A stretch of DNA of 35,927 nucleotides, taken from positions 1 through 35,927 of the forward strand of contig CADASF010000017.1 of the NCBI GenBank assembly GCA_902790465.1, written 5' to 3'. Both the position numbers and the translations under genes were made by a program. Positions within the stretch are counted from its first letter, which is position 1. The number at the start of each line of letters is the position of its first letter. The DNA comes from an uncultured bacterium. Lineage in GTDB: Bacteria; Vulcanimicrobiota; CADAWZ01. Below, in pieces: positions 9,369 to 10,361 of this stretch. A model generated the notes under the pieces. That model did no database searches. It was not told the DNA's origin and worked only from the letters and a program-made list of their open reading frames with translations.

Positions 9369-9520
9369 AAAAAATCACCCCAAAAATAAAAATATAGAAT
9401 ATATATTAAAATATAATATATTAATGTTTATATTTATTAATAATAGATTATACAACATTATACTAAATAAATGCAAGAAAAAATTAGAATAAAGATTTTT
9501 TAGAAGGAAATTTTTTTAAA

Positions 9521-9623
9521 TAAGTCTAAACTAAATTAAGACTTATGACGGATAACGTCAGACAAAAAGATAAAAAGGAGGGAGCGGGGCGACCAGCTAC
9601 GAGGTGGCTTACGCACAAGACCT
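9521..9623 (+). promoter_or_regulatory. Structured 5' leader with hairpin between Shine-Dalgarno and start codon
   Basis: Three hairpins can be drawn. P1 pairs TAAGTCT (9521-9527) with AGACTTA (9539-9545). P2 directly abuts it: TGACG (9546-9550), loop GATAA, CGTCA (9556-9560). After an A-rich linker comes a strong Shine-Dalgarno, AAGGAGGGA (9575-9583). P3 follows at once: 9584-9594 pairs with 9603-9614 (10 pairs including two G-U, one bulged A, one G-G mismatch, loop AGCTACGA). Only 9 nt (9615-9623) separate P3 from the ATG, and no other ribosome-binding site is near it. The 9577-9614 part is much richer in G+C than its surroundings. I recognise no riboswitch class. Confidence 0.6.
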
Positions 9624-10361
9624 ATGAAAAAAATTCTCATAGCAGAAACAAATGCACTTATAAAAGATATTCTTGCAACAGCATTTACAGATCTGCAGGG
9701 TTTTGAAGGAGAAGTGATCTTTGCTGATACACCAGACGAAGCGTTAAATCTAATAAAAAATCAATCTCCAGACATATTTCTAATTTCGGATGGAGAAGAA
9801 TTTGATGACATTGAAACAATTTACAACAATGCAAGAAAAACCGCTTCAAATATTCCATTTGTAATTTTATATACTTTAGGTAAATCGGTCGATTATATAG
9901 ATACTGAAAATCCTGAAGTTATAAATATACTTCTGAAAAAGCCTTTCAGTGTCATAAAACTATTGGGAATAATAAAAGGATTATCAGAAGGAAGAATAAA
10001 TGAAATAGAACTCATAGAAGAACCTTTTGACAAAGAGTCATTTATAAAGGAAGCTATAAAATCAGGGCGTCTAAATGTTCCTGAAATTTTGAGAGACAAA
10101 GAAGAATTTGCAGGATTACTTCCAGATGAACTATATACTAAAAAAGAAGATAATTCCCCAAAAATCGAACTTGATGAGCAACCCCAAAAAGAAGTAGAAG
10201 AAGAACCCAAAAAAGAAGAAAAGCCAAATCTCTTTTTAAATTTTGAACGCAATTTCACAAATAAAAAAGAACCTGAAAAAACTAATCAAGAGACAGAATC
10301 TTCACAGTCAGGAAATGTATTTTTAAGTGCAATGAAATCTCTTGATGATTGGGATGAATAA
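9624..10361 (+). CDS. Receiver-domain (CheY-like) protein with acidic C-terminal tail
   Basis: Residues 1-125 look like a response-regulator receiver: KKILIAETNALIKDIL (strand 1 and helix 1), a candidate phospho-acceptor Asp56 at the end of strand 3 (PDIFLISDGEEF), and the Lys-Pro of strand 5 at KKPF (105-108). The usual acidic pair after strand 1 is reduced to Glu8-Thr9, so metal binding and phosphorylation may be weakened. There is no DNA-binding output domain. Residues 125-245 are charged and probably disordered (many Glu and Lys), ending in a short motif FLSAMKSLDDWDE that may be a docking peptide. Translation probably depends on the structured leader upstream. The stop overlaps a possible upstream cysS start, so it may be co-transcribed with cysS and rlmB. 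Partner kinase unknown. Confidence 0.7.
   Translation: MKKILIAETNALIKDILATAFTDLQGFEGEVIFADTPDEALNLIKNQSPDIFLISDGEEFDDIETIYNNARKTASNIPFVILYTLGKSVDYIDTENPEVINILLKKPFSVIKLLGIIKGLSEGRINEIELIEEPFDKESFIKEAIKSGRLNVPEILRDKEEFAGLLPDELYTKKEDNSPKIELDEQPQKEVEEEPKKEEKPNLFLNFERNFTNKKEPEKTNQETESSQSGNVFLSAMKSLDDWDE

What the first reader, a model, noticed from the sequence alone, without database searches (positions are those of the whole stretch)
9521..9626. Shine-Dalgarno and AUG separated by a hairpin that would restore spacing when folded
The only strong Shine-Dalgarno of the receiver-domain gene (AAGGAGGGA, 9575-9583) is 40 nt from the ATG at 9624. The whole excess is one hairpin (9584-9614, 10 pairs); folding it leaves 9 nt, a normal spacing. 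Two more hairpins (9521-9545 and 9546-9560) abut each other upstream and could stack. In phage T4 gene 38 a hairpin between Shine-Dalgarno and AUG is known to play this role. Here the arrangement would make translation depend on folding, hence on temperature, a ligand or a protein. I know no riboswitch class with this layout.
Basis: partly seen in the sequence, partly recalled or inferred. Interest (0 to 1): 0.62.

Follow-up and report, generated by a model that had tools for sequence, protein, structure and literature searches.

The report
Hairpin-bridged ribosome binding site
The ribosome landing site of one bacterial gene lies about 40 letters from its start codon, too far for normal use, and a stable RNA hairpin, kept in a sister species, would loop out the excess as in two genes of phage T4; a neat but not unprecedented arrangement, here suggested for a bacterial chromosome gene.

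Summary
AAGGAGGGA (9575-9583) is separated from the ATG at 9624 by 40 nt. A 31-nt hairpin (9584-9614, 10 pairs, -12.4 kcal/mol) abuts the SD and leaves 9 nt. In a 436-kb sample of the genome (309 genes) strong SDs mostly sit 4-13 nt from the start. This gene's -40..-1 stretch is the only GC-rich one (65% against a mean of 25%). The sister species (G001, L009) has AAGGAGG, a 26-nt hairpin of different sequence abutting it, and again exactly 9 nt to the ATG. Random drift of the same size keeps this layout in 1.3% of simulations. The family-level relative (G002) has no such hairpin, and its SD is 15 nt from the ATG. The best reading is a "split" ribosome binding site as in phage T4 genes 38 and 25, arisen within this genus. 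Part of the window hairpin resembles a genus-specific REP-like repeat (106 copies), but the sister copy does not. Only two species carry the layout, so the evidence is suggestive, not proof.

The parts
9575..9583 (+). Distal Shine-Dalgarno AAGGAGGGA
   Evidence: AAGGAGG identical in sister species (L009 2957-2963); predicted duplex with canonical anti-SD -11.3 kcal/mol
9584..9614 (+). Spacer hairpin, 10 pairs (GCG/CGC, GGGC/GCUU, ACC/GGU; bulged A9611, G-G mismatch)
   Evidence: orthologous 26-nt hairpin at L009 2966-2991
9615..9623 (+). Remaining 9-nt spacer between hairpin and start codon; CC 9621-9622 can pair weakly with GG 9577-9578 of the SD
   Evidence: 9 nt in both species; SD GG to CC pairing probability about 0.64 in both, worth only about -1 kcal/mol
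9624..10361 (+). Response-regulator-receiver-like gene, 245 aa, start ATG; first gene before cysS-like and rlmB-like genes
   Evidence: Response_reg only E 0.013, below the Pfam cut-off; MKKILIAE / MKSILIAE start shared by three species
9472..9533 (+). Conserved upstream block, probably promoter region
   Evidence: 92% identical to G001 over 62 nt; AGAAGGAAA...AAATAAG also in G002; no consensus promoter proven
9520..9559 (+). Two abutting upstream hairpins (9520-9546, 9547-9559), lineage-specific
   Evidence: Stable in the window only; not predicted in L009 or L014
9601..9606 (+). Second SD-like sequence GAGGUG inside the hairpin
   Evidence: Aligned spacing 19, outside the genome's main range; not kept in L009

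Best explanation
A split ribosome binding site. The 30S subunit binds AAGGAGG at 9575-9583; the hairpin 9584-9614 stays folded and is looped out, so the AUG at 9624 lies 9 nt beyond the hairpin (11 nt by aligned spacing), within the genome's usual range. The fold is constitutive, not a switch. Shown: sequence layout, predicted fold, conservation of SD, hairpin position and 9-nt remainder in the sister species, and absence of the hairpin in the more distant orthologue. Inferred: that the ribosome uses this SD, that the hairpin helps initiation, that the 16S anti-SD is canonical, and that the arrangement arose in the ancestor of this genus.
For: Layout and stability. Orthologue L009: AAGGAGGAA, then GCGGGCC-N10-GGCUAUCGC, then 9 nt, then ATG. 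Effective aligned spacing is 11 in both, against 4-11 for most strong SDs in 436 kb. Drift simulation: 1.3% retain a hairpin of at least this stability abutting the SD with 9 nt left. In the 309-gene sample it is the only start found without an SD 3-14 nt upstream that has a strong distal GGAGG-type SD. The 5-nt length difference between species and the lack of any in-frame ATG/GTG/TTG before 9624 speak against a longer protein start. Hairpin pair probabilities are near 1 in context. Precedent: T4 gene 38 (22 to 5 nt) and gene 25 (27 to 11 nt), PMC3014915.
Against: Only two species have the layout. The G001 hairpin is only moderately stable (-6.3 kcal/mol, z -1.4), and 6.5% of its shuffles do as well with a suitable spacing. 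No clean compensatory pair was found, because the upper stem pairs in a shifted register. The SD GG can pair with CC before the AUG (probability about 0.64), which could reduce access. 16S rRNA was not found in G000-G003, so the anti-SD was not read. No expression data.
Confidence: 0.6

Rival explanations
1. The hairpin represses: SD GG 9577-9578 pairs with CC 9621-9622 around the hairpin, holding the SD and the region before the AUG in an extended stem that must be opened, possibly under control.
For: The GG to CC clamp is predicted in both species at probability about 0.64, and CC lies at the same distance from the AUG in both.
Against: The clamp is 2-3 pairs worth about -1 kcal/mol against about -11 for SD with anti-SD; most of the SD lies in an open internal loop; no further conserved element suggests a ligand or protein site.
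Confidence: 0.13
2. Remnant of a genus-specific REP-like palindromic repeat that inserted between SD and AUG and was tolerated because it folds. This concerns origin and is compatible with the best explanation.
For: GAGGGAGCGGGGCGACC matches the repeat GAGGGAGCTGTGCGACC at 15 of 17; 13 of 20000 shuffles with the SD fixed match as well; both repeat and hairpin occur in G000 and G001 and not in G002.
Against: Without the SD part the similarity is weak (824 of 20000 shuffles); the sister species' hairpin shows no similarity; the repeat's outer stem ATTGC/GCAAT is missing from the leader.
Confidence: 0.15
3. The hairpin is incidental: initiation uses the internal GAGGUG (9601-9606) or needs no SD, and AAGGAGGGA is unused.
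For: GAGGUG has almost the same anti-SD energy; 30 of 309 sampled starts show no SD of 4 nt or more at 3-14 nt.
Against: GAGGUG has an aligned spacing of 19, beyond the 4-13 of nearly all strong SDs, lies in the folded hairpin, and is not kept in the sister species, whereas AAGGAGG is.
Confidence: 0.2
4. A riboswitch or thermosensor with three hairpins.
For: Three predicted hairpins in the window, z -3.7 for 9515-9640.
Against: The upstream two are not predicted in either orthologue; no Rfam match; the spacer hairpin is stable across 20-55 C; single-copy leader, with no second gene found carrying it.
Confidence: 0.04

Closest known systems
Phage T4 gene 25 split ribosome binding site (Nivinskas 1999; Malys and Nivinskas 2009, as reviewed in PMC3014915)
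   Same: Hairpin between SD and AUG reduces a 27-nt gap to 11 nt; conserved among close relatives and absent in distant ones, as seen here between genus and family
   Different: Phage gene at an intercistronic junction with reporter and DMS evidence; here a first gene of a bacterial operon with a 40-nt gap, a different sequence, and prediction only
Phage T4 gene 38 (PMC3014915)
   Same: Gap of 22 nt reduced to 5 nt by a hairpin between SD and AUG
   Different: Shorter gap; phage gene; no sequence relation was looked for beyond the layout
E. coli thrS split ribosome binding site (PMC3936740)
   Same: The ribosome accommodates a folded hairpin inside its binding site
   Different: There, to my knowledge, the hairpin separates an upstream single-stranded domain from the SD/AUG domain and serves autoregulation; here it separates SD from AUG

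Membership tests
Split (accommodated) ribosome binding site of the T4 gene 25/38 type | SD too far from the AUG for normal use | tested here: met
   Aligned spacing 42 against 4-13 for nearly all strong SDs in 436 kb
Split (accommodated) ribosome binding site of the T4 gene 25/38 type | Stable hairpin wholly between SD and AUG that restores functional spacing | tested here: met
   Predicted fold leaves 9 nt in both species
Split (accommodated) ribosome binding site of the T4 gene 25/38 type | Structure conserved in close relatives | tested here: inconclusive
   Kept in the one other species of the genus, 1.3% by drift simulation, but only two sequences and no clean compensatory pair
Split (accommodated) ribosome binding site of the T4 gene 25/38 type | Breaking the hairpin lowers initiation | not testable with these tools
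   Needs reporter fusions
Known riboswitch or RNA thermometer (Rfam) | Match to a family covariance model | tested here: not met
   No match at gathering score in the whole window; only a chance minus-strand NEAT1_2 match at E 0.82 in the leader
Genus-specific REP-like repeat | Core sequence and ATTGC/GCAAT outer stem | tested here: not met
   15 of 17 core match, but no outer stem, and no similarity in the sister species' copy

The most novel reading that the evidence does not exclude
A REP-like genomic palindrome inserted between SD and AUG in the ancestor of this genus and was kept as a working hairpin-bridged ribosome binding site, after which its sequence drifted while its fold and the 9-nt remainder were held.
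Probability: 0.12. Interest if true: 0.6.

Novelty: new member of a known kind. Interest (0 to 1): 0.38.

Why it matters
If true, it is a case in a bacterial chromosome, kept in two species, of a layout that I could document with SD and AUG on either side of the hairpin only in phage T4 genes (the literature search was limited to open-licence full text). It bears on how much structure the 30S subunit tolerates between SD and AUG, and on start-site annotation: gene finders that look only 5-15 nt upstream would score this start as lacking an SD.

Tried and rejected
Rfam scan, gathering and permissive: nothing relevant. Longer protein from an upstream start: no in-frame ATG/GTG/TTG, and the spacer differs by 5 nt between species, so no shared frame. 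A leader peptide GTG 9604 to TGA 9627 overlapping the ATG exists in the window but is not conserved in L009. Thermosensor: pair probabilities nearly flat with temperature. Genome-wide copies of the leader: none besides the orthologue. The upstream conserved motif as a regulon signal: no second strict copy in 436 kb. 16S rRNA was not found in G000-G003, so the anti-SD could not be read. L010 and L011 are distant receiver proteins (31-33% identity); L010's leader is not comparable and L011's was not examined. Taxonomic naming of RUG13696 failed.

Full report
The region. The window is contig C17 of a 3.05-Mb draft genome, about 31% GC in the 436-kb sample. The finding lies in the intergenic stretch between a murA-like gene on the minus strand, followed by mreB and a TamB-like gene, and a plus-strand operon whose first gene is a 245-aa receiver-like protein, followed by genes that look like cysS and rlmB (the last two named from their sequence, not searched). 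The receiver assignment is weak: Response_reg E 0.013, below Pfam's cut-off.

The observation. AAGGAGGGA lies at 9575-9583 and ATG at 9624, with 40 nt between. The stretch 9584-9614 folds into a 10-pair hairpin of -12.4 kcal/mol; in the local ensemble its pairs form with probability 0.96-0.99 at 37 C except one G-U pair at 0.53. Nine nucleotides remain. A shuffle of the 40-nt spacer gives an equally stable fold with suitable remaining spacing in 1.4% of cases, so the fold alone is only moderately unusual for its composition. What is unusual is the composition: 65% GC where the mean of 309 genes is 25%; no other sampled gene reaches 57.5%.

Is the distance abnormal for this organism? In 309 sampled genes, SDs of 6 nt or more sit mostly 4-11 nt from the start (aligned to the last G of GGAGG), nearly all within 13. 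The receiver gene's is at 42, or 11 if the hairpin is looped out. Starts were chosen by a simple rule that favours nearby SDs, so the distribution is somewhat idealised. The few other distant cases have a nearer SD, look like internal starts, or have only a weaker or isolated match.

Related species. The protein has relatives only in its family: G001 (same genus, 70-81% identity over the matched part, record RUG13696, by its name a rumen assembly, loci L009/L013) and G002 (62%, L014). No match was found in G003 (69% complete) or in the other, more distant genomes searched (3 of 58 with a match, the window's own included). In G001 the leader reads AAGGAGGAA, GCGGGCCAAACAGAAAAGGCUAUCGC, AUAAUGCCA, AUG: the same SD, a 26-nt hairpin directly abutting it, and again exactly 9 nt to the start shared with the window protein. 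An in-frame ATG six nt upstream, giving MPMKK, is also possible there. The lower stem GCG/CGC is identical. The upper stem keeps pairing, but in a shifted register, so there is no textbook compensatory pair. The 5 nt that differ in length fall inside the hairpin. Applying the observed 11 substitutions and two deletions at random to the window spacer gives a hairpin at least as stable, abutting the SD and leaving exactly 9 nt, in 1.3% of 20,000 trials. In G002 the SD-like GAAAGGGAG is 15 nt from the ATG, with only a marginal hairpin of -1.6 kcal/mol. The long, structured gap therefore looks like an innovation of this genus.

The upstream hairpins. They are stable in the window (z -4.8) but not predicted in G001 or G002. 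The first overlaps the 3' end of a block 92% identical to G001 (9472-9533) that is partly shared with G002 and is more easily read as promoter region; this is inference, since no promoter consensus stands out.

Is it a switch? The spacer hairpin is predicted folded from 20 to 55 C in both species. The SD's GG can pair with CC just before the AUG in both species with probability about 0.64, but that clamp is worth about 1 kcal/mol against about 11 for SD with a canonical anti-SD. Nothing points to a ligand or protein. A constitutive bridging hairpin is the simplest reading.

A similar repeat elsewhere in the genome. Searching the genome for near copies of the SD-hairpin segment found a genus-specific palindromic repeat, consensus GTCATTGCGAGGGAGCTGTGCGACCGTGGCAATCT, with 106 copies in G000, 34 in G001 and none in G002-G004. 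The leader shares 15 of 17 letters with its core. With the SD held fixed, 13 of 20,000 shuffles match as well; without the SD part, 824 of 20,000 do. The sister species' hairpin shows no similarity. Origin from this repeat is possible but not shown.

Comparison with the known. T4 genes 38 and 25 have the same design: SD-AUG gaps of 22 and 27 nt reduced to 5 and 11 nt by a hairpin, with mutational and probing evidence and, for gene 25, a phylogenetic pattern of presence in close and absence in distant relatives (PMC3014915). E. coli thrS shows that a ribosome can accommodate a folded hairpin within its binding site (PMC3936740). The present case works, on paper, like gene 25; without mutational data it is a candidate member.

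Limits. Two sequences with the layout, predicted structures only, 16S not recovered, a sample rather than the whole genome for the background, and a limited literature.

Noticed in passing
window 16332 (+), 19545 (-), 35724 (-); 106 places in G000, 34 in G001: Genus-specific REP-like palindromic repeat GTCATTGCGAGGGAGCTGTGCGACCGTGGCAATCT; several copies lie in a longer element with inverted flanks GCCTCTATTTAGAA ... TTCTAAATAGAGGC (MITE-like) followed by GATCGACTCAATTTTTAA. Absent from G002-G004.
   Followed up: partly
window 9472-9533: Upstream block 92% identical to the sister species, with AGAAGGAAA-N6-7-AAATAAG also in the family-level relative; a possible promoter of unusual type; no second strict copy in 436 kb.
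   Followed up: partly
window 9604-9627: A short frame GTG GCT TAC GCA CAA GAC CTA TGA overlaps the receiver gene's ATG as ATGA, a layout typical of translational coupling; not conserved in L009.
   Followed up: partly
L009 3001-3825: C-terminal part of the sister receiver-like protein carries near-perfect repeats (EEKPNIFSSFMNEDDNN) not present in the window protein.
   Followed up: no
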